Below are positions 21,781-46,708 of a stretch of 64,000 bases of DNA, in pieces. Origin of the DNA: Cytospora piceicola (lineage: Eukaryota > Ascomycota > Sordariomycetes > Diaporthales > Cytosporaceae); NCBI GenBank assembly GCA_023375675.1, contig JALQBC010000015.1, positions 434,001 to 498,000 of the forward strand, read 5' to 3'. The translations under genes and the position numbers were made by a program. The notes beneath the pieces are model-generated. The model saw only the letters and a program-made list of their open reading frames with translations. It made no database searches and was not told the origin of the DNA. The first letter of the stretch is position 1; each line of letters starts with the position of its first letter.

Positions 21781-24700
21781 TCAGATGTAGAACATAGTAT
21801 TCTTCAACTTGTCATGAACACCAACCCAGCCCGCCCCACCAGCCGTGCTGCCAGCCACAGTGCTAGCCCCATCCGAGTCCCCGTCGAACAGGTCTGCCAT
21901 GTACCGCCTCGCCCGTTCGCACAGGATATCAGCATGGTACGCCGGCGTGCAGATGGACACGGCCTTGGTGGCCCGGGAGTAGCTGTAGCACAGCGCCTGC
22001 GTTATCCTCTCCAGCTCATTGGCCGCGAACTGGTCCGGCTCCTTCATCTTCTTCGCGTGGTCGCGAAGGACTTCGTCCAACACCACGACGTAGTGCGCCG
22101 GCCGTGCCGTGCCCTTGATAGCCGCGTGCGACTGCAGGTAGAAGTCCCAGAAGCCCTCTTCCGTTACCCCGCGGTCGACTACCGTCCCGGGCTTGCAGTT
22201 ACCACTGATGTGCATGTCGTTTTGCCCCGAGGTCGTGGGGAAGAAGCGAGTATGGTGGCGCTTGCCCACGATGATGACGCTGAGGCGGGGCAAGTTCTTC
22301 TTGGTCATGTCTGGTGGGTAGGTCGCTTGACAGGCCTTGCGCAGCAGGGGCACCTCTTCCTCGAAGACAGTCTGGTATTGGCCCTCGGAGACGCCGTCGC
22401 GGTATACGAGGATATTTTCTGGGTAGTGAGCGTGCCTTCCCAGTGTCCTCCAGTTGTTGAGGTGAGTCTTGAGCATGCTCTCAAGGTCTGCGACCATTTC
22501 CTGACGGGCTGTCTGGACGCTGAGAGTACCAGGCCACTGGCCGAGATGATTGTCGATGGATGAAACCATGCCCGCCACGGATGGTGCCTTGTCGGAGGAG
22601 CCGGGGGAGGGATGCGTCACGTCGATGCCCACGATCATAGTCTTGTCGTCGTTGATGAAGGACAGGTGCGTCGACTCGACCGCCTGATTGTTGCCGCCGA
22701 GCTTGAGGTTGAATTTGAGTGCGACATTGGCGAAATACTGGTCTTGACCGCGTTCGCCAGCGAATTTGATACCCACAACACATATGGTATGGATCCCATA
22801 TTTAGTGTCGCCCAGGGTCTTGACGTAACTGTACAGATCAGTGTTGTCGCTTTTGTCTTTGCCAGGAAGGATGACAAGCAGAAGATCCGATTTGGTCGAT
22901 TCTGCCTGGAATAATTTGTCCAGGGCAGGATCACTAGGGTATGACATAGTCACCTCCTTACCAGATTCTGGGGCTTTATGGACGGTCACACCGTTCTTCA
23001 CAAGCGCTTGAGAAAATTTATCAACAGTAGCTCCGAGGTCTTCCAAGGAATGGCCAGGTCGCCCTTTCCCCACCCGGATAGCAACCCACGACCATGTCTT
23101 GAGGTTTCCGGGCTTATTGAATTTGACCTTGTCCATGTTCCAGCCGCCGAAGGCAACATTGACAGCCTTGTTTTTCTTGTGGATGTCCTTGTAGAAAACC
23201 TGGGGTGCGTCCAGAACACGAGCTGGAACGGTGATGAGGCTTTGGCCAACGTTGATGCCAAATTGTGCCTGAAATTGTTGTCAGCAGGGAGTTTGAAAGT
23301 CAGTCAGGTAACAAGATAGCCACTAACCAGCAGGGGATTTGTCTGTGATGACAGACCGCCTGTTCGAAGGCCATTCTCGACGATACTCTCCGCATTCATC
23401 CATGGCCCACGCACGGCGAAATTGATCATATTCCGTGTTTGATCACCGCTAAGCTTCGCCATGGCGCTCTGGCCTGGCAGGACGATGCAGACTTCCGCTG
23501 GCAGGTAGGAAGGATTATGATCCGAGCCGACGTTGATCACGGGGTAGTCATCGCCCGTTTGGATTCCGTAAGTGTTCTTGAAGTGATCATGAACGCTGAC
23601 ATATCGGCCTGTGCCAGATTCGGCGGGTTGCGGTCCAGCTGTTTCGGTCTTGCCTTTGCCCCCCCTACCCTTTCCTTTCTTTTTGGGTGTGGCTTGAGAG
23701 GGATCGGCACCAGGCACAGATGAAGATGGGGCTGCCGAAGTGGGCTTGTCCTCGAGCCAGAATTGCACGTTCTTTGGTCCAGCACCAAACTCTTTTACCC
23801 TCGGAGGGTGGGCTAATTGGCGACCATCAGTCTTCTTGGCCAGTCCCATGATAGGCTTGACACGATGGACGACCTCCCCCTTCCTGTTTTTCTTCTCCTT
23901 CAAATGGGTCGTCCTGACGCGGACCCGCTTGAGAAACTTCTCAAGGGCGCGCATCCCTCGGTCGTTGTAGCGCATGTCGAAGGATTCCATCAGCCTTGTC
24001 AGATGGCCCTCATGGTAGAAGGCCCCGTGACTGACGTTGATGTTGACCAGCACGCGATTAGTAGCGGCACGAACGCTGGTGAAGAAGCCACGGAGGGCAA
24101 CCAGGCCTCTGCCGAGGTCGGTAGAACCCGCATTGCCACTCATGGAGAAGGTCTTACTCGCACCGATGGTAGCCAGGTTGTTGGTCGACTTGGCATAATG
24201 CTTCAAGAAAATATTGAGGGCCTGTATCATATCGAGCTTGTTGTCGTACAGGATGGAAGGGTCCGTGGCCGTCAGGTAGGATAGTAGGTCACCAACGTTG
24301 AGTGTCTTTGTATACTTGACCGTAACCTTGTACTGAGTAGCCCGCTCCTTGGGATCATCTTCGCCCTCGTTCCGGTAGGTGACGAGGATGGTCATCTCAT
24401 TGCCTTCCATCTTGAGTTTCTTCCGGGAAATCAGGGTGGACTTGAAGTCAGTAACCATGTCGTTTCGGTACTCCGTCAGTTCTGAAGCCTCGTTGATCAT
24501 AAGACGAATGACCTGAGTGGACTTCTTGCCGGCAACTTCGGGCTTGATGTCGGAGATGTCGTAGGAGTACAGGGTCAGGCTGGGGTGGGGCATCAGCTCG
24601 ACGTAATTTGCATAGACAATGATGGGTTTGCCCTCTGAACCGTAACTTGGTCGTGGAGGCATCATGGCCTTGGATTCGTCCAGGTTCAGCGCGCGCAGGG

Positions 24701-25111
24701 CGTGGTTTGGGGATTTGCGAGCTTTCTGGCGATCATCCTCCACTGTCCTGACCTGAGCATCTGGGGTTGGGATTGGAAGTGGGTCCCCGTTGGAGGTAGG
24801 GCTTTTCACAAAGTTAGATACGGCAAGCGGCGAGATATACAGAAAGAAACTCACGTGTAGGCTGGGGGGGGTTGGCGGTCGCGTCCTCGTCCACCACGAT
24901 CACCACCACGATCACCACCACGAAAGGCACCCCGATCAAAGCCTCCACGAGATCTGCCCCGATCAAAGCCTCCGCGACCACCCGGGGGAGGACCGCCTCC
25001 GCGACCAGGCGGGAACGAACCCCCTCGGCTTACACCGCCACGAGCACTACGAGGATCTCCACGCCCTCGGAGGCCATCCCCGCGGCCGCGTCCTCTTCCA
25101 CGATCGGCCAT
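21781..25111 (-). CDS. Argonaute (QDE-2-like), slicer-competent
   Basis: Three exons: 25111-24855, 24801-23328 and 23268-21781, giving about 1072 residues. The N-terminus (~80 residues) is an RGG-rich tract (GRGRGRGDGLRGRG...). Then come the N and linker domains, a PAZ region with a Lys/Gly-rich insertion, and a full PIWI domain. The catalytic tetrad can be placed: Asp793 in GIDVTHP, Glu834 in RQEMVADL, Asp868 in YRDGVSEGQ and His1022 in PAYHADI. All four are present, so target cleavage should be possible. The C-terminus ends NTMFYI, with a terminal hydrophobic residue as in other Argonautes. The role is small-RNA-guided silencing (quelling/RNAi) of transposons and viruses. Dicer and RdRP are not in this window. 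The start was set at the first ATG; upstream codons in frame begin only at a GTG. Confidence 0.93.
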
Positions 25112-30122: not shown

Positions 30123-31504
30123 TCAAACGTCCACTGCTGTAACAGCCGCCCTACCCTCCACGCTCTTCTCCGAGTCCACCGCTGTGACAGCCTCCCTGCC
30201 CTCCGCCCCCTTCTCCGAGTCCACCATGACACCTTCAGCTGGCTGTTCCACGTCAGTCGAAGCCGAGAAAGCCGGCTTGGGCTTCCGGAGGCCCCAGCAG
30301 GTCAGCAACGGGGTGAACACGCCCAGATTTCCGTGGATCTCATGGTACCGCAAGCCGATGAAACAGAGGATCATGAAGAGCCAGTACAAGTTGTACGAGA
30401 TAATGGTGCCGTACGTAGCCGAGTTCTGCCAACCGAGGATGGCGTTGAAGATGCCCCAGCCACCGCCGCCGTCCATTTCCGGGTTGCAACAGTTGACATG
30501 CCACACGCTCTGGGTGATATCGTAGGATCCGGGACCAGATCCAGTCTCGGAGGCATCACCGCCGATCACCAGTCCCCATTTGTAGTTCTCGAAGTACCAG
30601 ACGGCCTTGGAGAACAGACCGGCAGCAATGAGGTACAGGAAGCATGTGGAGATGATGAGGAAAATCTGCATGGAAGTCGCGTGGCCACCCCTGATACGAC
30701 GGGTCAGCAATGTTGTCCACTGGGAGATACTGTGATGAAAGAAAGCCACGTACTTGTAAATGATATACCCAACAACGCTTCCAGCCAAGATGCCACAGAT
30801 AATGGCAAGTGGGAATGAACTAGCTGGCAGGCCTGTCAAGGTGACGCCGCCAATGTACACTACGGCTTCGAGACCCTCTCGCAAGACGGTGACAAATGGC
30901 AACAAGAACATGACATGCTTCTCCGACCAGATCTTGATAGAACGGTAGATCCCACCAGCGTCATTCCAGCGGTGACTTTGCTTCTCCTGGGACTCGAGAG
31001 CCAGCTTGAGCTTGACTCGCCATTTCTCTTGCATCTTGTTGATGCGCAGCATGGCAATACCCATCAAGGAGATGATAAAGCTGGCAATGATGCCAAAGAC
31101 GCCCTCCCAGATGTCTTCGGTTTTGGAGAAGTAGTCCTGGCGAATGGTATAAAAGGCCCCGATCATACCGGCCCCGATGCAAATGCAGATGAACAGCCCT
31201 AAGGCTACGCCGATCCATACCTAAGGAACGTGGATCAGTCAAGTCCGAGAAGCAAGCCTGGGGATATATGTTGAGTGGAAAACAAACCTGTTTGTTCAGC
31301 CTCTTGCGAGTGACTTTGTCTTCTTCGCCTGACAGACTCTGCTGGAGGAAAGCAAGAAGGACCGAGACGATAACGCTTGTCTCAAGGGACTCCCGGAAGC
31401 AGATGAAGAAGACTAGAGTAGGTGATCAGCAGTGCGAGATACACATCAACAAGCTGGTCAGTTCAGGTAAGCTCACTTGAAACGGAAAAGACGTTGACGG
31501 TCAT
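30123..31504 (-). CDS. ftr1: High-affinity iron permease (FTR1 family)
   Basis: Exons on the reverse strand: 31504-31477, 31412-31288, 31220-30754 and 30690-30123, giving about 395 residues. Start MTVNVFSVSIF is the usual FTR1 N-terminus. Both iron-passage motifs are present, RESLE in TM1 and REGLE (FVTVLREGLEAVVY) in a later helix, as well as DASE in the large outer loop. Seven hydrophobic helices fit the plasma-membrane permease. A 63-nt in-phase segment, 30753-30691 (GTACGT...CTGAC...TATCAG), is an intron; removing it gives IYKGGHATSMQIF. The protein works as a complex with the FET3 ferroxidase, encoded divergently 867 bp away. SreA-type GATA motifs in between suggest repression by iron. 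Confidence 0.93.
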
Positions 31505-31884
31505 GATGGGCGATCTGTGCTGGTCGACAACACGAACATTGAATGGGCTCAAGATAGCTAGGCAGGCGGAAGGCGGCAGGAGGGGGAAGTGGTTTGGAAT
31601 GTTTCTCAGAAGCCCCGTTCGTTGTTTTTCAAGTTTCTTCTCCTGCACCACTGTGGCTCCGCACACGTCTATATTGCGTGGTAGCCGTGAGATCCTCCGG
31701 TCCTGATCCGGTACGCTCCCCACATGCAGGCATAAAACCTTGTCATGTAGAGATGAGCCCACTTTTGCCGGTATTAGCCGATTATATCTGATCGACGGAC
31801 CAGTAGTCAATGGCGATTAAAGCGGAACGTGGCGGGAGTAACCATCATCCTTGCCAATACCACTTCCCATTGCATAGAGTTGCG

Positions 31885-31903
31885 TTATCAGACCATCTGA
31901 TAA
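31885..31903. promoter_or_regulatory. Paired SreA-type GATA sites in the ftr1/fet3 shared promoter
   Basis: ATCTGATAA at 31895-31903 matches the fungal iron-GATA factor consensus ATCWGATAA exactly. TTATCAGA at 31885-31892, immediately beside it, is an inverted near-copy (8 of 9). A third, partial site, ATCTGATC, lies at 31786-31793. Confidence 0.7.
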
Positions 31904-32222
31904 AAACTTTTGCCTTCCGGTCCTTGACTAGCGCCGGCTGTACTGCAAAGTCAATAACACCCTCGGTCCAACACCGACCAACCCCGACCTTGTTATCTCA
32001 GTCTAGACTCCTTGTCTTGCTTGGATCGTCGCCATCCTCGAGTGTGTGGGACGTCGGAAAAACCAATCGATGACACAGAAGCTGTTGTCTAGTGACTCAT
32101 CGTTGCTGACGCAAAGTATACATAATACGGAAAATGGCATGGGGCTGGTAGAAAAGAGCTTAGCAAAAACGCGAAGGGTGGGGACGGGGGGTAAGGGTGG
32201 CTAAAGTGCCACTGATCCGAAG

Positions 32223-32231
32223 ATCTGATAA
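32223..32231 (+). promoter_or_regulatory. SreA-type GATA site upstream of fet3
   Basis: A perfect ATCTGATAA lies 141 bp before the FET3 start codon. Together with 31895-31903 it gives the shared promoter two perfect sites. Confidence 0.7.
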
Positions 32232-32371
32232 TATTTTGTGTATCGATCACCTTGACCGGCTCCCTGCCCTTCGTCCGAAAACTTCTACATTGAACTATCA
32301 GCCATCTCCCTCGCTTCGGCTTCCTACAGTTCACATTGGCCAGCCGGGCAACTTCACCAAGCCAAGTCAAC

Positions 32372-34347
32372 ATGATGCTGCCTACCCCATTCATCGTGGC
32401 CCTCTTTTGGGGCCTCTTCTCCCTGCGAGTCGCAGCCGAGACGTTGAACTTCGACTGGAACATCACTTGGGTGTTGGCAAATCCCGATGGCATGGCCACG
32501 CGGGCTGTCATAGGCGTCAACAACCAGTGGCCACCCCCAGTCATCAACGCCACCAAGGGTGACCGGATCGTCGCCAAGGTAACAAATGGGCTTGGAAACC
32601 AAACCACGTCCATGCATTGGCATGGTTTGTACCAGAATGGCACCAACTACATGGACGGGCCGCCTGGTGTTGTTCAGTGCCCAATTGCACCAGGGCACTC
32701 GGTTACATACAACTACACAGTTCGAACCCCCCCCCCCCAAACCGCCCTTGTAGCGGATGACTGTTTGAATAACCGTCACCCATACTAACTTGCTGATTAG
32801 GTCGACCAAGCGGGTAGTTACTGGTATCATTCCCACACCAAAGGCCAGTACCCGGACGGCTTGCGACAGGCTCTTATCATCCAAGATCCAGAGAACCCTT
32901 ATGCCGGACAATATGACGAGGAGCGCATTATAACATTATCAGACTGGTATCATGATTTCTTTCCGGAACTGCTGAAGGGCTTCATATCCTACAAGAACCC
33001 AACAGGTGCTGAGCCGGTGCCCAAGTCCGCCTTGTTGAACGACACGAGCAATTTCACCATGGCTGTTGAGCCGGGCAAGACATATTTCATCCATCTCATC
33101 AATGTCGGTGCTTTTGCGTCGCATTATTTCTGGATCCAAGGCCACACTATGAGGATTGTTGAGGTCGATGGTATCTGGGTCAATGCTTCCGATGCTGAGA
33201 TGATTTACATCTCCACTGCTCAACGATACGGCGTCCTGGTGACTATGAACAACGACACAAGCACCAACTATCCCATGATGGGAAGTATGGACACGGACCT
33301 CTTTGACACAATTCCTTCATCGCTGAACTATAACGTCACGGGATGGCTGGTGTACGACGACACAGCTGAACTTCCAGCGGCAGATGAAATCTACGACTTC
33401 GATTACTACGATGACTTTAACCTCGTCCCCACGGACGGCGAAGGTGCTCTTGGGGATCCAGACTACACCATTACGTTGGACTTAACCATGGTAATTGCCA
33501 CATACCCGTTGTTCTTAGCCATTAAGACTCGTATGCTGACCTACTTATAGAACAACCTTGGCGATGGCGCCAACTATGCATTCTTCAACGACATCTCCTA
33601 CGCTGCTCCAGTCGTGCCAACGATATTTACCGCCCTGTCAGCCCCTGCGGAGGACGTTTTAAACCCAGGAATCTACGGAAAATACACCAACCCCTTCGTC
33701 CTTCCTCATGGCCAGATCATCGAACTCGTACTCAACAACGACGACACCGGCAAGCATCCGTTCCATTTGCACGGCCACGCCTTCCAAGTCGTCTCCCGGA
33801 GCGACGACAACGCAATGCACTTCAACGGAACATTCACCGACCCTATCCCCGCTGTGCCCATGCGCCGCGACACCCTCATAGTCAAGCCGTCGGGCAACTT
33901 CGTGATCCGCTTCCGAGCTGACAACCCGGGCATGTGGTTCTTCCACTGCCACATTGAATGGCACATGGACAGCGGCCTGGCGTCGACGATGGTCGAGGCC
34001 CCGGAGGTGTTTCAGAAACAGACCGTCATCCCGCAGGACTTTTTGGACCTTTGTGAGGTGGCTGGTATAGCGACCACTGGAAATGCTGCGGGCAACACCG
34101 ACGACTTCCTTGACCTCTCGGGCCAGAATAAGATGGTCCCATGGCTGCCTTCGGGGTTCACGACCAAGGGCTATGTGGCCATGGTTTTCAGTTGTATAGC
34201 GGGTGCCCTTGGTGTGGCTACTATCGCTTGGTGAGTACACCCTTGTAGCGGCTCTCTTTTGCAGATGCTATTCATCCACAATGCGGTACTAACTTCGGAC
34301 TCCTTAGGTACGGCATGGCACCCATGAAGGAAGGGCCAACGGCGTGA
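32372..34347 (+). CDS. fet3: Iron transport multicopper oxidase (FET3-type ferroxidase)
   Basis: Four exons: 32372-32719, 32801-33490, 33551-34230 and 34308-34347, giving 585 residues. A signal peptide ([23 protein letters not shown]) leads to three cupredoxin domains. Copper ligands are in [19 protein letters not shown] and HCHIEWH. Residues specific to ferroxidases are kept: Glu in NPTGAEP, the Asp pair in MDTDLFD, Tyr in NYAFF and Asp in NNDDTG. This separates it from laccases. A C-terminal helix ([23 protein letters not shown]) anchors it, leaving a short cytosolic tail. It oxidises Fe(II) and passes Fe(III) to FTR1, its divergent neighbour. Intron 1 uses an unusual GTTCGA donor beside a C12 run. 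Confidence 0.93.
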
Positions 34348-39400: not shown

Positions 39401-40309
39401 ATGGCGAACCGCGTCCCTTTCTTTTTCTACGCCCCGACCTGGGATTTCCCCCCTGACGGCCCCATCAAACTCGGTAACGTCCTTGCATCGCTCAAAACCC
39501 CCGAGATGCCGTTGCATACTACCCCGCTCCTTATCGAGGATGAGGCGCTATCGACCGAGAAGCACGAGGTCGAAATCTCTACCGAGAAGCTACGCGAGGG
39601 CAAATTTTCGATTATCACTAAGTTCCTAAGCTTCTTGGGTGTCGGAGTCGATGCCTGCGCCGGCGGGAGTACAAGGTTCGTCCCCTTGCCTGTTCAAGCT
39701 CCAGGATTTGAAAGAACGATGTTGTGTAACAGGGTATGCAGTAGTGGAGAGACCTTTTCTTTGGAAAGCATACAGACAACGCAGTTCTTTCCGCGGGAAC
39801 AGTACTTCCGGAGATGTGTTGAGGCTGCAGGTGTGCGTCGATTTCTAGAGAAATCTCGCTACAGGAAGCCTGTCTACATCATCACGGGCTTGAAGGTTGT
39901 CAAGGGCGCCAGAGCAAAGAACTTCAAAGCCTCATCTCTTGAGGGTGAGTTGGGAATAAATGTAGATGCCACCGTGTGGACTGGGGGTGGTATACCCGTT
40001 GCAGGTGGGCCTGGCGTGTCTGGGACCGTGTCGAGAAAGCAGGGAACTTCGTGGGAGGGGAGCAGTGACTTTGTCCTGGCATATCGGGTACAGAAGCTCA
40101 AGATCAGTAGGACAGGAGCCATAAGTCGGGCGGAGGACTATAAGACAGGCGCAATGTTGGGGAACGATGTGGAGGAAAAGGAGGCGCCCGAGCTTGACAT
40201 CCTTTTGGATCTTGTAGATGTGGGTCAAGAGGTCGGATTTGTGGCGGAGGAAATTACTGAAGGGGAAGAAGTATTCTTATGCGCTGTGCCAGCGAGTATC
40301 GATTCCTGA
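39401..40309 (+). CDS. Gasdermin-like protein, candidate cell-death effector
   Basis: ATG 39401 gives MANRVPFFFYAPTWDFPPDG. The frame runs 302 codons and probably contains a 57-nt in-phase intron, 39676-39732 (GTTCGT...AACAG), leaving 283 residues. The N-terminal part begins PDGPIKLGNVL. The core has the pattern KPVYIITGLKVVKGA, a gap with a Gly-rich hairpin, then SSDFVLAYRVQKLKI. That order (VYxxT, basic strand, LAYRVxKLxI) matches the pore-forming N-domain of gasdermins. An acidic tail of about 50 residues follows a basic/flexible stretch, resembling the short C-terminal inhibitory segment of fungal gasdermins. The neighbour, convergent 249 bp away, is a subtilisin-like protease, the same pairing as HET-Q1/HET-Q2. 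Homology is inferred by eye; another beta-rich lipid-binding family is possible. Confidence 0.55.
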   Translation: MANRVPFFFYAPTWDFPPDGPIKLGNVLASLKTPEMPLHTTPLLIEDEALSTEKHEVEISTEKLREGKFSIITKFLSFLGVGVDACAGGSTRFVPLPVQAPGFERTMLCNRVCSSGETFSLESIQTTQFFPREQYFRRCVEAAGVRRFLEKSRYRKPVYIITGLKVVKGARAKNFKASSLEGELGINVDATVWTGGGIPVAGGPGVSGTVSRKQGTSWEGSSDFVLAYRVQKLKISRTGAISRAEDYKTGAMLGNDVEEKEAPELDILLDLVDVGQEVGFVAEEITEGEEVFLCAVPASIDS

Positions 40310-40558
40310 ACTTTTCGAACGCTGAAAGACCTGGCTGACTTGGGTAAGATTAGGAGCAGGGCATACTCAATGTTGTCAATTATCGCTGTCCGCAAGACAC
40401 CAAGAGACTCTTTTGCGACTGTGCCGAGCACGTTCACGAGGCTGCTGGTAAGCTGTCATAAATCACGGAAGTTCTCATACTATCAGACCACATGTGTCGA
40501 GTTTATTCGTTGTATTCCAGTGTCATGCCCCTCCACTTTGTCACGCCATGATTTAGTT

Positions 40559-43500
40559 CTAGCCGTTCAATATGTCCATGATGGTCTGATCTATATACGG
40601 TTTATCCTTCCCAAAAAGGCTATCACCAAACAGGCTCATATCCACAAAATAATATCCGTCCCTGGGCCCACCTCCTTGGACCTTCTGCGCGATCCGCTGT
40701 AACAGGGAGACCATGCGACTTCGATCTCGAAGCCGGTGCGCGGCCTTAGGCAAGTGTATACGCGCGTACAGCAAGAGAAAAGCGGCGATACCAGCCATAA
40801 TGGGCGTAGAATACGACGTGCCTGACTTGATCGTGGAATATGTTTCGTCCGCACCCTCTTCTGTCGCACCATAGTCTTCGCTGCTGTAGAGGTGCGTAGA
40901 ACAGGCTGACTCTACGGCCTGCCCTACCGTTGCCAGGTTGATATCCTCGGGTATGGCGGTTGGGCTGAAAGGTGAGCGATTGCCATGCACGTCGGTAGAA
41001 TGTACGCACACCACGTTGGCCTCACGCGCTGGGTACGCTCTCCCCAGCTGCCCGCCGCTGTTGGAGGCTGCCGCGAACAGAAGTACATCATGAAAGTAAG
41101 CATGCTTAATTGCATGATCCATATCATCATAGTCCTCGATGTTGCGAGTTGGGTATCCGAAAGACATGCTGATTATATCAACCTTCCAGATGTCTACGGC
41201 GTGCCTGATGGCCTGGTATGCCCTATCAGCAATTGCGCCAGAAGCAAATCAAAGGAAACTAGAGGTTGCAAGATGTTAGGGAATTACCTTGGCAATGACA
41301 GATGGGCTGGGGGGCTTCCTATCCGCAACTTCGGCGATATATATCTCGGCATCTGGAGCGTAGTCGAAAGCTAAACCAGCCACAAAGGTACCGTGCCCGT
41401 TGATATCATTCACAGTGGCTTTAGTACTATCGCGTAGCCAGTTGTGCTTTGCTTTGATGTTGTCGGCAAAGGCCTGTATATCTGGGTGGTTCAAGTCGAT
41501 GCCTGTATCGATAATGGCGACCTTGACGTGTGGCGCGGACACGCCAGAGCGAAGATACGGACTGATGAACTTTTCGTATACAGACTTGTATCTGCCCTTC
41601 CAATGGGAGTAGCGTGCGCACCTGGAAAAATTCATCAATATTTGTCTCTTACAGATCAAGCTACTTTAACTTACGCATCAGGAGAGTGAGCACCTGTCCC
41701 CAATTCGTCGTCGAAGAATCTTAATGCCTTATAGTCTGCTTCGCTAGTCAGATCTTGCATTGGTGCTTGATAGACTCCTGACACCAGCTGGGGGTGCAAG
41801 TACTTGTCCAGTCGCTCCACGCCAAGATGTTGTCTAGAACGCGGCGCTATGGGTGGTGAAGAGTGAGTTGAGCCGGATGGTGATGTATATTCACGATAAT
41901 GACTGGGCAGGCTGCCCAGCGGACTCAGTCTTTGCTCGCTGGAGTTGGACCAGTCATCCTGGTTGTTCGTCTGTGGGTTTCTAATGGCTTGATCCCAGCT
42001 GCTGAAGTCCAAAGTCTGGGCAAACTGATCCAACTCATCGATGGATATGGTGCTATAAGCAAGGCTGAAATCACTCTCCAGGGGCTGGACAACCTCTTGG
42101 TATATCTTGGCTTTCAAGACTTGGCTGTCAAGTCTGTTACCATTCTCGTCTTCCCACGTCGCTGTGTCTAGACATTTCTCGACGGCATAGAGGAACTGAA
42201 CATTCTCCGGTATTTCATGTCGACAGGCACTGAATACCATGCTGGCGTCCAAATATCTGAAGCATGACATATCGTCTCCGATCTCCACGTCCAGACGTTT
42301 GGCCAGAACATCAAAGGGGGTCACAAAGTAGACCTCCATCAAGATTATCGCCAGCGTGACGAGTGAGGGACACTGGTGCTGCGGCCACTCGTCGGGGTCG
42401 AATCCGTCCTCAGACCATTCATCGGATTGAGGAACCAACTTATCCACTTGAGACAAACGGGCTTTCAAAAATGGCCGTAATGGGACCTCGGAGGCTTTCG
42501 TGCGGAAGAAAATGATGTCAGATGAGTTCCACGTCGATTGCAGCCAAGGTGTGTCTTGTAGGTGCAAGACAGTGTAGCTCAGCAGCACCGCTAGGATGCG
42601 CTTCGTCTTGTCGGTGAATGCCCGTGGGCCACTATGCAGGAAGTGCTCGAGTGATACAGCGTCCTTGGTAAAATCGAACACGTGGGTGCGTGGCAATGAC
42701 CGTAACTTGAACAGACGGCCCCGCATCACCTTCAGCTCGACTCTCATGTTCTTTGGGGCCTTGCCTATGGGCTTGCATAACTCTTTAACTGGCGCAGCAA
42801 GTTCGCGTGGCTTCGGCAGCGTTGTTTGTCCTGGGAGGTCGAACTGTATAGCATTCTCTTTGACCGTGTGCACGCAAACCTCCTGCCAGTCATGTTTCAT
42901 TGAGAGGAACAAGTTGAAATCAACATCTCCAACGTCGGCGTCGATATTGGACTTGCGGTACGTTCCAAGACATAGCCTGGCACCAAAGTCATGCTCAGGC
43001 TTGCATACGCAATTTTGGCAAGAAACCAGGGTCTTGAATGCAGCCTGTGCAGCCTTGCCGACGGACAAGGGAGGGTCGACGACCTTCTTCTGTGGTGTAA
43101 AATCCTCTGTTGTCCAGGACTGGTCTTCTGGATACCGAGCTTCCACCTCATTCTCCCACGTCGCCAGGAACTCAATAAAGCTCATGCGCTGATCGTGTGT
43201 CTTGCCAAAATCAAGGGCACTGTCGATGAACTGGGATTTTGCGAGGCTATCTTTAGTGCGAACATCGTTCCACCGGGTATGGAATTCTTGTAATCTGCGC
43301 TCGCTGGATGAGTCTGTGGTGATAACTGCCCCAAGTCGTATAGCGATGGACTCGATAAGTTCTGGGGCCAAACCGAATCCGGCTCTTGCTATACGTTCCA
43401 GATCACTGCCGATGATGACGCTGTGGACCATCAAATCGGCGAAGAAAAGCCGCAGCTCGACACTGCCCACACCAGCTCTAAGAATCACCCTAACGATATC

Positions 43501-43686
43501 CAAGATAGTTCCCAGTGCTCTTTGAATTATAACTGAGCCAGTATTGAGACTGTTGAAGCTGGATCCTATCGAGGCCATCTGAAGAACAGCTGTACGCAAC
43601 TTCGTTAGCTTTCTGGCGAGCAGCAAGCTTAAAGGTTCCAGAATCAGCAGAGACTCATATGAATGGGAGGAGATTAGCGCTTCATA
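40559..43686 (-). CDS. Subtilisin-like serine protease with large N-terminal regulatory region (HET-Q2-like candidate)
   Basis: Exons read: 43686-41675, 41621-41288 and 41212-40559, roughly 1000 residues. The first exon and ATG are unresolved: the frame starts after a CTCAG acceptor at 43687 or further upstream. The N-terminal ~600 residues are helical and resemble the DUF7580-type region of fungal NLR-like proteins (LLSYTVLHLQDTPWLQSTWN). The C-terminal S8 domain keeps the triad: Asp in VAIIDTGID, His in INGHGTFVAGL, Ser in SGTSYSTPIMAG, plus oxyanion Asn in AASNSGG. There is no signal peptide or I9 prodomain, so it should act in the cytosol. It is convergent with the gasdermin-like gene, which suggests that it cleaves that protein (inference). 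The last intron uses acceptor ACCAG at 41213, which restores VIAKAIRHAVD. Confidence 0.85.
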
Positions 43687-44302
43687 CTGAGTAAGTGTAT
43701 TCCATTTGTATCCAGTCGCTTGGTGGTGGTGTTAGAGCCAGGTCTATCGTTGAGCCTGCCACCTGGGAAAGGAGAAACCCAGCACTCGAGTATTGGGAAC
43801 ATTGAATGATCCGTCGACCAAGCCCCGCCCCTGGGGTACCTAGGTAACATATGGGAGAACGACATATGCATGTACGGCGAGTGGCTAAGTAAGTACATAA
43901 GCCGGATAACAGGGAACTAATTACATTTATCCTTGTTATCTACAGAGGTTTCAACCGAAGTGGATATTGACCTCGGAGGCGAGAAGACTCCTGTCCCGAC
44001 GAAACGCCATACCTAATAAAGAAACTCAACGATTGTCAGGGCATATCTAAAAGCAGTCACTCAGTAACCGCTTTACATTCCAATTTATCGGAGCCTCGCT
44101 GCGTGGAAACTGACCACCAGACCCCGCACAACCCCGCATAAGCAGGTGAAAATATCTCGTTGTCAACACCTACTGTAGTCTGGAACCTTGCTTCATATCT
44201 ACTTACTTAAGTCAGTATGTAATTTGCGAGTTCTGAGGCCCTCCTAGGTCTCCCGCTCCTTATAAACAGGCAAGCCGCGACATGTTATACTAAATACTCA
44301 TC
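43687..44302. other. Divergent intergenic region
   Basis: Likely holds the first exon and promoter of the protease and the promoter of the zinc-finger gene. GGTACCTAGGTAAC lies near 43836. Confidence 0.4.
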
Positions 44303-46708
44303 ATGGCCACGAGTCCTGCAATGTTGCGAGAGACAACCACACTGGCAAGCCAGTCCGAGACATGCATCACCTCCTTTCAAAGATGCTTACAAAAAGCATC
44401 ATTGGTTCATCCGCGGGAGCTCTCCATAGTTGAGGATCAGATGGCGAGGTTTTCTGTTTGGACAGGCAACACGAGGGTCTTTGGCTCAAGCCGACAGTCC
44501 CTTGACCACCGGCTTCGGGAAGCCCCAGAGGTCCAGGATACTTTTGCCGCTCTACTTGAAGCAATAAATGATCGTATCGAAATTTGTAAGTGCATACCAC
44601 GACACTCCATATGCAAATTCTGTTCTTACTACCTGTCTAACTGCACGACGAAGGTGCGTCGTCTTTGGACGGCTTGATTCCAGAGCAAGCTGACGGCACA
44701 TTGGCAACTTTGGACAGAGTCTTCCAACATGCTGTTCAGGGTATTGCAGACCAGATCAGCCTATTGTACAAACTGTCCAATACCATCCGACGTGCGAGCA
44801 AAGAGATGCAAAACCTCGAGGCAGCCAATGCCATCCGGATATGCGACGATGATGGCAATGATTCTGAGTCCTCTTTCCGGCTGATACTCATGCATTACAT
44901 TCGGGATAAGTTTCCTACGACCAGCGAAGTTTTACAGGAGCGCCTAGCGGGTGCAATGATTCTTAGACGAAAGAGGATCCTGTACCGGCGGTCGCGGTAC
45001 GGAAACAATCCCATTCGATTGCCGAACATACCATCTCAGCCTGTTTTCAAAGTATCTCGGGCTCAGCACAGGGGTCAACCACAAATTGCAGACGCAGATC
45101 TAGAGGCAGGGGCTATTCTTCCCCAGACACCGAGCCGCGTCGGGTCATTGGCGCCGAGTGCAACAACACTTGAGGTAAATCTGTTTCGTAAGGCTTCGGT
45201 TCCATCCGTGGTATCCTTGTCGAAGACTGTCGCCTTGAGTAGCCATGAGACAATTATTTTCCCGCCGGCACCGACCGGCATAATCAAGCTCAAGCAGAGA
45301 CAGCTTATGCTGGAGCGATGGAAGGGCCTTCAGAAACGACTTAATCCAGAATTCGAAGATCAGTCACCCACCCGATGCTGGGAAGACGCCGTGATTGCTG
45401 TTAGGGAAGTGACCTGCCCATACTGTTTCTACGCCATACCAGCTCCAGACATCGTTGATGAGAAGAAATGGAAGTAGGTGCGCCCCTATCTATCCCAGTC
45501 GTGAGATTTGCTTGAAGATTCAATGTCCTCTACCGCCAGGCTGACGCTCATCGGCTAGACGGCATGTCATCAATGACCTCGACGCCTACATATGTCTTTT
45601 TGATGATTGCGAGTCTCCAGAGAAACTGTACAACCAAAGCTGCCAGTGGCTCCACCATATGCAACAGCACGCGCTACGCTGGCGGTGTTCCTCGAAATTA
45701 CACGCGGACTTTTTGGGGTCTTCAAAGGAGGAATATATCATGCATATGAAGACAGAACATCGATCAAGACTCACGGATGCGCAACTTCGTTTGCTAGCTG
45801 ACAAAAATGGCCGCACTATCGGGCCCCTGTTTGAATCCTGTCCTCTCTGTGGGATCGAGAGATACGACGGCAATATAGAGGAGCATATTGTCGGCCATCT
45901 CAGGCTCCTTGCAATTAGGTCTTTACCAGCGTGTGAGGATGAAGGGCCTGTAGATCCCGACAGCACCAGCGAAAGTTCTTCACTGCAACAGAGCCGGAGT
46001 ACAGTAAGGGATGCATTGGAAGACCATGCCCAAGAGAACGACAACCACCCGTGGGCCCTCCAAAGCGCGTATAACTCGGTGTTCGGCTCCCCATCATATT
46101 CGAGCACTCAAGGCCTCCCGAGACGAGACAGTCTCGATGGAAAGGGCATCAGCGACATTCTTACAGTATTGGAGGATCCCGCTCACAGACCCCGAGAGAA
46201 CCCGATTGTCGTCAAAATGGATCCAGTATGTGCCATTTGCAAAGCCCCCGCCGACATTGCATGCCTCTGCGAGGCTGAAGATCTCGAGAAACATCTTCGA
46301 CAGGCCGAAGAAAACTTCAAGAATCGCCTTGTACCCGAACCGCGTGAGTGGGTGCGCAACCACGCCCAAGCCCATATTTCTAGAGAGTTTAAAGCCGCCC
46401 AAGGGGAAGCCGCGAAGGCGGGCTTCGTATCTACCAAGCTCGCGAAGGTAGAAAAGACCGACGATATAGGCGAGCCAGAGGACGATCACATAAAGGCCAA
46501 GATCGACGTCAACGAGGTGTGGTCTGAGACCTACCAGACGTACCCACAGACCTTGGAATACTTCTACAGTCTAATTGAGTTTGAACTTCCGGGAGATGAC
46601 GAGCCTGCGGTGAGAGAACCACCTCCTATTCATCCCAAGGGCCACCAGAAACCACAACATGCCCAGTCTCCGGCTTCGGGGCATGGAAATCGGGGTGACG
46701 GGGTCTAA
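44303..46708 (+). CDS. Zinc-finger (acuF-like C2H2-type) fungal protein
   Basis: Three exons, 44303-44585, 44654-45473 and 45559-46708, give 750 residues. Residues ~1-270 are helical with no catalytic motif. The central region has spaced Cys/His groups: CPYCFYAIP, ICLFDDCESPEKLYNQSCQW with following HHMQQH, HMKTEH, and CPLCGIERYDGNIEEHIVGH. These match the degenerate C2H2 fingers of the acuF-like family, often attached to fungal STAND/NLR-type proteins. The C-terminal ~200 residues are charged and include a CAICKAPADIACLCEAEDLEKH cluster. DNA or protein binding is plausible, but the function is unknown. It is divergent from the protease gene, so a shared cell-death/non-self-recognition neighbourhood is possible (inference). 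Confidence 0.75.

What the first reader, a model, noticed from the sequence alone, without database searches (positions are those of the whole stretch)
39401..43686. Gasdermin-like gene paired with a cytosolic subtilisin-like protease: candidate pyroptosis-type module
Seen: a protein with gasdermin-like strand motifs and a short acidic tail, convergent with a large S8 protease that keeps Asp/His/Ser but lacks a signal peptide. Known: in Podospora anserina HET-Q2, a subtilisin-like protease, cleaves the gasdermin-like HET-Q1, and such pairs are common in fungi; RCD-1 of Neurospora is related. The protease N-terminus resembles NLR-associated regions, suggesting that it senses a signal itself. 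The allelic specificity of this pair would be new.
Basis: partly seen in the sequence, partly recalled or inferred. Interest (0 to 1): 0.86.

Follow-up and report, generated by a model that had tools for sequence, protein, structure and literature searches.

The report
Three-gene fungal gasdermin death module

Summary

Three additions. (1) The protease N-half is not an NLR region: it is DUF7580, predicted to be a catalytically dead kinase-like fold. (2) A third gene (44303-46708), head-to-head with the protease, encodes a zinc-finger protein. In this genome all 9 places found for it (window included) lie within 3 kb of a DUF7580 match; 20 foreign contigs hold all three genes. (3) Its front half is conserved; its back half varies. 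Three DUF7580 genes without protease start with a hydrophobic helix instead.

Best reading: zinc-finger partner senses, pseudokinase-protease relays, gasdermin kills. The kill step follows HET-Q1/HET-Q2; the third gene's role is inferred from linkage. Allelic specificity could not be tested.

The parts
39401..40309 (+). Gasdermin gene, CDS 39401-39675 + 39742-40309 (280 aa)
39676..39741 (+). In-frame intron of the gasdermin gene (66 bp; alternative acceptor at 39732 would give 57 bp)
   Evidence: GT..AG boundaries and length match to homologues; 62 of 68 aligned rows lack the stretch, 5 foreign rows (P0018, P0020, P0038, P0056, P0077) carry extra residues at the same place
40148..40159 (+). 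GAML linker motif (residues 250-253 of the 302-codon frame), candidate cleavage region
   Evidence: G in 99%, A in 100%, L in 90% of 68 rows, followed by a poorly conserved stretch; that it is the cleavage site is inference
40160..40306 (+). Acidic C-terminal tail, 49 residues, candidate inhibitory segment
   Evidence: 15 D/E, 1 K/R; net acidic in 68 of 68 rows
40559..43578 (-). DUF7580-subtilase gene, exons 43578-41675, 41621-41288, 41212-40559 (963 aa)
41622..41674 (-). Protease intron 1 (53 bp)
41213..41287 (-). Protease intron 2 (75 bp)
42067..43059 (-). DUF7580 region (residues 174-504), predicted pseudokinase fold
   Evidence: Pfam; model; Foldseek; VIA-align; catalytic-loop pattern in 0 of 77 rows
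41704..41721 (-). RFFDDE: FFDDE motif at the junction between the disordered linker and the protease domain
   Evidence: FFDDE invariant in 15 of 15 aligned rows; position; model of low confidence over residues 538-634
40772..41527 (-). Subtilase domain (residues 667-893), catalytic codons at 41509 (D673), 41395 (H711), 40816 (S879)
43579..44302 (.). 724-bp intergenic stretch between the divergent starts of the protease and third genes, presumably their shared promoter region
   Evidence: promoter role is inference
44303..46708 (+). Third gene: zinc-finger (C2H2-like) protein, exons 44303-44585, 44654-45473, 45559-46708 (750 aa)
   Evidence: gene model checked (one open frame, GT..AG introns); homologues; linkage

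Best explanation
The locus is a three-gene regulated-cell-death module. The gasdermin (280 aa) is kept inactive by its acidic C-terminal tail. The neighbouring protease is a helical bundle plus pseudokinase (DUF7580) fused to an active-looking subtilase. When the module is triggered, the subtilase cuts the gasdermin in the linker near the conserved GAML, and the freed N-domain forms membrane pores that kill the hyphal compartment. The divergently transcribed zinc-finger protein is the upstream partner: its constant front half contacts the DUF7580 half, and its variable back half receives the signal, so sensing is in a separate gene. Shown here: homology, predicted fold, triad, linkage and matched divergence of the pair. 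Inferred: cleavage, its site, the direction of signalling and the biological trigger.
Confidence: 0.66

Rival explanations
1. Two-gene module only: the DUF7580-protease both senses and cleaves, as proposed in reviews for HET-Q2-like proteins, and the zinc-finger gene is a neighbour with a regulatory job, such as a transcription factor for the cluster.
For: PMC10197012 describes two-gene clusters with the protease gene as the sensor (section 15). The third protein has zinc fingers. Head-to-head genes can simply share a promoter.
Against: The third gene keeps this position also at DUF7580 loci with no gasdermin hit (C87, C14 twice), and homologues carry TPR, WD40 and other modules behind the zinc block, unlike a dedicated transcription factor.
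Confidence: 0.2
2. The gasdermin works without cleavage, by allelic partners as RCD-1 does, and the protease is a regulator or remover of it.
For: Closest solved structures are RCD-1; RCD-1 is activated by two coexisting alleles without cleavage (PMC12881547).
Against: A conserved acidic tail and linker beyond the N-domain, an intact protease triad and co-divergence of the pair fit cleavage control. The N-domain also matches HET-Q1, which the reviews describe as cleaved.
Confidence: 0.1
3. The module is decayed or inactive in this species: the genes are relics.
For: Only genomic DNA was seen; no expression data. One DUF7580 locus elsewhere (C14:691107) lies only 153 bp from the zinc-finger match and shows no N-terminal helix exon.
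Against: All three window genes have open frames with ordinary introns, the triad is intact, and five close pairs are retained in the genome.
Confidence: 0.04

Closest known systems
HET-Q1 / HET-Q2 of Podospora anserina (fungal gasdermin plus subtilisin-like protease)
   Same: A linked gasdermin and S8 protease; the gasdermin profile reaches the HET-Q1 pore chain 9uv9 at 7.4e-8; short C-terminal segment beyond the N-domain.
   Different: No allelic incompatibility is known for this locus. The HET-Q2 sequence was not at hand, so it was not tested whether HET-Q2 has DUF7580 or a zinc-finger neighbour.
RCD-1 of Neurospora crassa
   Different: RCD-1 is described as activated by two alleles without cleavage (PMC12881547); here a protease is linked.
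Q2L proteases clustered with fungal gasdermins (PMC10197012, section 15)
   Same: S8 protease next to a gasdermin; PMC12881547 also says that some proteases are fused to predicted kinase-like domains and that clusters have two or three genes.
   Different: The passages seen name no zinc-finger partner and no split receptor; 'zinc' and 'C2H2' occur 0 times in the main text of PMC12881547.
MLKL and RIPK3 (necroptosis)
   Different: The MLKL alignment has rmsd 17.5, so the relative placing of the two parts is not matched; many other kinases score equally; here a protease is attached, and the hydrophobic AGL..P start seen in the DUF7580-only genes is absent (0 of 77 rows).

Membership tests
Fungal gasdermin (fGSDM) | Sequence homology to characterised gasdermins | tested here: met
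   RCD-1-1 1.4e-15, HET-Q1 7.4e-8, bacterial gasdermins about 1e-3; of 8 distinct chains at E up to 10 one is unrelated, at E 0.2
Fungal gasdermin (fGSDM) | Gasdermin N-domain fold | tested here: met
Fungal gasdermin (fGSDM) | Short C-terminal segment beyond the pore domain | tested here: met
   49 residues after GAML, net acidic in 68 of 68 rows
Fungal gasdermin (fGSDM) | Pore formation and killing | not testable with these tools
   needs expression
HET-Q2-like (Q2L) S8 protease clustered with a gasdermin | S8 domain with catalytic Asp, His, Ser | tested here: met
   Pfam 4.1e-30, D673/H711/S879, subtilisin BPN' 3.9e-16
HET-Q2-like (Q2L) S8 protease clustered with a gasdermin | Gene beside a gasdermin gene, kept in relatives | tested here: met
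HET-Q2-like (Q2L) S8 protease clustered with a gasdermin | Cleaves the gasdermin | not testable with these tools
   needs biochemistry
NOD-like receptor (NLR) | NB-ARC or NACHT nucleotide-binding domain in the protease | tested here: not met
   Pfam on the full protein, E up to 1: only DUF7580 and Peptidase_S8
Protein-kinase-like fold (DUF7580 half) | Bilobal kinase fold | tested here: met
Active protein kinase (DUF7580 half) | HRD-type catalytic loop and DFG-type motif | tested here: not met
   pattern H-R/G/C-D in 0 of 77 rows, D-F/L/Y/M-G in 7 of 77
MLKL-type / HeLo killer | Membrane-inserting N-terminal helix | tested here: inconclusive
   AGL..P-type motif in 0 of 77 protease rows and in 3 DUF7580-only genes of this genome, but the motif was written after seeing those three, and the window protease has a stretch of hydropathy 1.60 at residues 15-33 against 1.86-2.61 in the three
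Heterokaryon-incompatibility (allorecognition) locus | Allelic polymorphism causing incompatibility | not testable with these tools
   one genome only; no population data

The most novel reading that the evidence does not exclude
A kinase-pseudokinase relay of RIPK3-MLKL type has been wired to a gasdermin. The zinc-finger partner, in some copies apparently a kinase, activates the DUF7580 pseudokinase, which here appears to lack the membrane-piercing helix of its relatives and instead unleashes a fused subtilase on the gasdermin. One constant signalling pair (zinc-finger protein plus DUF7580) would then drive two kinds of death: directly through a hydrophobic helix at gasdermin-free loci, or through protease and gasdermin here. 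The swappable back half of the zinc-finger protein would be the sensor repertoire.
Probability: 0.27. Interest if true: 0.85.

Novelty: new variant of a known kind. Interest (0 to 1): 0.6.

Why it matters
PMC12881547 (passage) calls the nature of the stimuli that activate the sensors of fungal death clusters a major open question. If the divergent zinc-finger gene is the sensor, that question becomes testable: its variable back half can be swapped or deleted in model fungi, and its constant front half can be used to find further death modules by position. The gasdermin-free DUF7580 loci would also connect the fungal necroptosis-like and pyroptosis-like pathways through one signalling core.

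Tried and rejected
NLR reading of the protease N-half: rejected, no nucleotide-binding domain. Pfam for the gasdermin: no family; the precomputed label PF26164 on three homologues was not reproduced by the Pfam copy here. Sequence search of DUF7580 against the PDB: 2 chains at E 1.2 and 1.8, neither meaningful, so the kinase claim rests on the predicted model. PF17111 (named PigL_N here), tried as a proxy for a HeLo-like N-terminus: 10 matches, none at a DUF7580 locus, so the hydrophobic helix of the DUF7580-only genes is not filed under any named family. A HET domain lies just past the C22 third gene, but with 109 HET matches in the genome this may be chance, and its membership in that gene is not shown. 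The N-terminal helical bundle of the protease (residues 8-148) was barely tested by the fold search (one search says so). Allelic specificity: no way to test it. The original HET-Q1/HET-Q2 paper (Clave 2022, PNAS) is not held; what is said of it comes from two reviews, so a published mention of the third gene cannot be excluded. Paper searches: 'DUF7580' (0 papers); gasdermin+C2H2+heterokaryon incompatibility (0); gasdermin+C2H2+fungal (2, unrelated by title and abstract start); gasdermin+pseudokinase+fungal+zinc finger (7, listing only); Q2L+gasdermin (3, only PMC10197012 relevant by listing); HeLo+pseudokinase+fungi (15, 12 listed, listing only). Rows dropped before the contig count: P0001 and P0121 (the window itself) and P0089 and P0182 (no contig length); only the 120 best rows of each search were available (of 166, 183 and 166). 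In one search the two third-gene rows of the unnamed contig of 15124 bases were left out (40 foreign proteins, from 40 of 41 contigs, were used).
Full report
WHAT IS THERE. The window lies in a 43.6-Mb assembly of 99 contigs, an ascomycete judging by its homologues. At 39401-40309 (+) a frame opens with MANRVPFFFYAPTWDFPP. In an alignment of 68 sequences, 62 lack a stretch that this frame has; 5 foreign rows carry extra residues at the same place. The DNA there has GT..AG ends. The gene therefore has an in-frame intron (39676-39741, 66 bp; the alternative acceptor at 39732 would give 57 bp) and encodes 280 residues. On the other strand, three exons (43578-41675, 41621-41288, 41212-40559) encode a 963-residue protein. 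Its homologues begin where MASIGSS lies, so the start is 43578 rather than 43686.

PAIRING IN THIS GENOME. Gasdermin matches fall at six places (C9, C22, C57, C41, C15, C2). DUF7580 matches fall at ten. Both searches score only their best candidates, so these are lower bounds. Five gasdermins lie within 2 kb of a DUF7580 match; the sixth (C2) is 6.1 kb away with the third gene between. In four of the five close pairs the two genes converge; at C15 they run in tandem. The four close pairs other than the window's carry all three catalytic motifs; at C2 my pattern found His and Ser but not Asp.

PAIRING ELSEWHERE. Using organism plus contig length as a fingerprint, 47 of 118 gasdermin rows share a contig with a protease row (two of the 47 are unnamed contigs); no contig length was shared by two genera. 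The remaining rows cannot be called unpaired, because only the best 120 rows per search are shown. Where both rows carry sequential locus tags, the tags are consecutive: 14 of 14. The shared contigs come from at least four classes: Coniochaeta (Sordariomycetes), Cudoniella (Leotiomycetes), Lepidopterella (Dothideomycetes), Penicillium (Eurotiomycetes). Distances between gasdermins follow distances between their linked proteases: Mantel r 0.749 over 46 pairs (45 named foreign ones and the window's), reached by 0 of 2000 free shuffles and 0 of 2000 shuffles within genera, whose maximum was 0.744; nearest neighbours agree in 31 of 46.

THE THIRD GENE. A whole-genome search with 403 residues of the third protein gave 12 matches at nine places, the window's own included. 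All nine are within 2.9 kb of a DUF7580 match, all upstream of it on the opposite strand. Three of them are weak on their own (E 0.004, 0.024, 0.044). The tenth DUF7580 locus, C79, was not found by that search and has only a weak tblastn match (5e-4). If places were random, the chance for nine of nine is about 1e-25, but the window's own place is not a trial, and paralogous clusters inherit their neighbours, so this counts copies, not events. Elsewhere, 20 contigs hold all three genes, 14 more hold protease and third gene, and 7 more hold gasdermin and third gene. In 6 of 6 checkable cases the tags run gasdermin, protease, third gene consecutively. Among 41 third proteins (40 from such contigs and the window's), the part before the zinc-finger block and the block itself are recognisably alike in 820 of 820 pairs, but the part behind it in only 217 of 703 pairs (38 proteins with 80 or more residues there). 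That contrast is partly built in, since homologues were found by conserved parts.

THE BACK HALVES. In this genome TPR repeats share one open frame with the zinc fingers at C87 (1.1e-8). Kinase domains follow the zinc-finger frame on the same strand at C22 (3e-27), C2 (2.2e-19) and C57 (1.3e-8), and a subtilase domain at C41 (2.1e-8); that they belong to the same gene is inferred, as introns were not mapped. Of ten foreign third proteins scanned, three on contigs shared with a protease row carry WD40 (P0310), annexin (P0308) and DUF6590 (P0280); two more such proteins carry nothing (P0241, P0256); five whose linkage was not seen carry phosphatase, TPR, BAG, SH3 and a CCCH zinc finger. Constant front and swappable back is what one expects of a receptor family; that is inference, and some fusions may be gene-model errors.

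DUF7580 WITHOUT A GASDERMIN. At C87, C14 (two places) and C79 there is a DUF7580 gene with a third gene (weak at C79) but no gasdermin hit. Three of these begin with a hydrophobic helix of the type AGLVIGVVGVIP; 0 of 77 protease sequences have that motif. The pattern was written after seeing the three, and the window protease's own value of 1.60 is not far below that of C87 (1.86), so this is a description, not a test. The fourth (C14:691107) lies 153 bp from the zinc-finger match and shows no such start.

HOW IT MOST LIKELY WORKS. Signal to zinc-finger partner, to pseudokinase-protease, to a cut in the gasdermin linker, to a pore. The last two steps follow the HET-Q1/HET-Q2 precedent as given in PMC12881547 (passages seen) and PMC10197012 (passages and section 15 seen). 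The first two steps rest on linkage, co-orientation and domain content. The rivals are a self-sufficient two-gene module with a regulatory neighbour, and an RCD-1-like gasdermin that needs no cut.

WHAT IS NEW. Gasdermin-S8 clusters are known: about 80% of fungal gasdermins lie by a protease gene and about 63% by an S8 gene, according to PMC10197012. Kinase-like fusions and two- or three-gene clusters are mentioned in passages of PMC12881547. In the papers held here I found no mention of a conserved zinc-finger partner and none of DUF7580; two searches were judged by listing only, and the primary paper was not available. I therefore rate the find a new variant of a known kind.

Noticed in passing
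window 21781-24899 (-): Argonaute gene (Piwi 6.3e-73, ArgoN, PAZ): RNA-silencing machinery about 15 kb from the module.
   Followed up: no
window 30123-34234: Divergent iron permease FTR1 and multicopper oxidase genes, presumably a reductive iron-uptake pair.
   Followed up: no
window 41704-41721 (-): FFDDE is invariant in 15 of 15 aligned proteases, at the end of a disordered linker just before the subtilase domain: possible docking or self-inhibition motif.
   Followed up: partly
window 42067-43059 (-), residues 190-196 of the protease: C-x-C-x3-H is invariant in the 77-row protease alignment: possible metal site in the kinase-like N-lobe.
   Followed up: partly
L021:3-1057 (-): Behind the third gene's zinc fingers at C41 lies a subtilase-like stretch on the same strand (Peptidase_S8 2.1e-8), so both partners there may be proteases.
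   Followed up: partly
L029:2307-3095 (+): A HET (heterokaryon incompatibility) domain, 1.4e-23, lies right behind the kinase frame at C22; another lies at C2:954110, about 3 kb from the C2 gasdermin. The genome has 109 HET matches, so this may be chance.
   Followed up: partly
P0122 / P0242 (Tolypocladium) compared with the window: The Tolypocladium protease is 61% identical to the window's, as close as Coniochaeta's: possible horizontal transfer or long-kept ancient copies.
   Followed up: no
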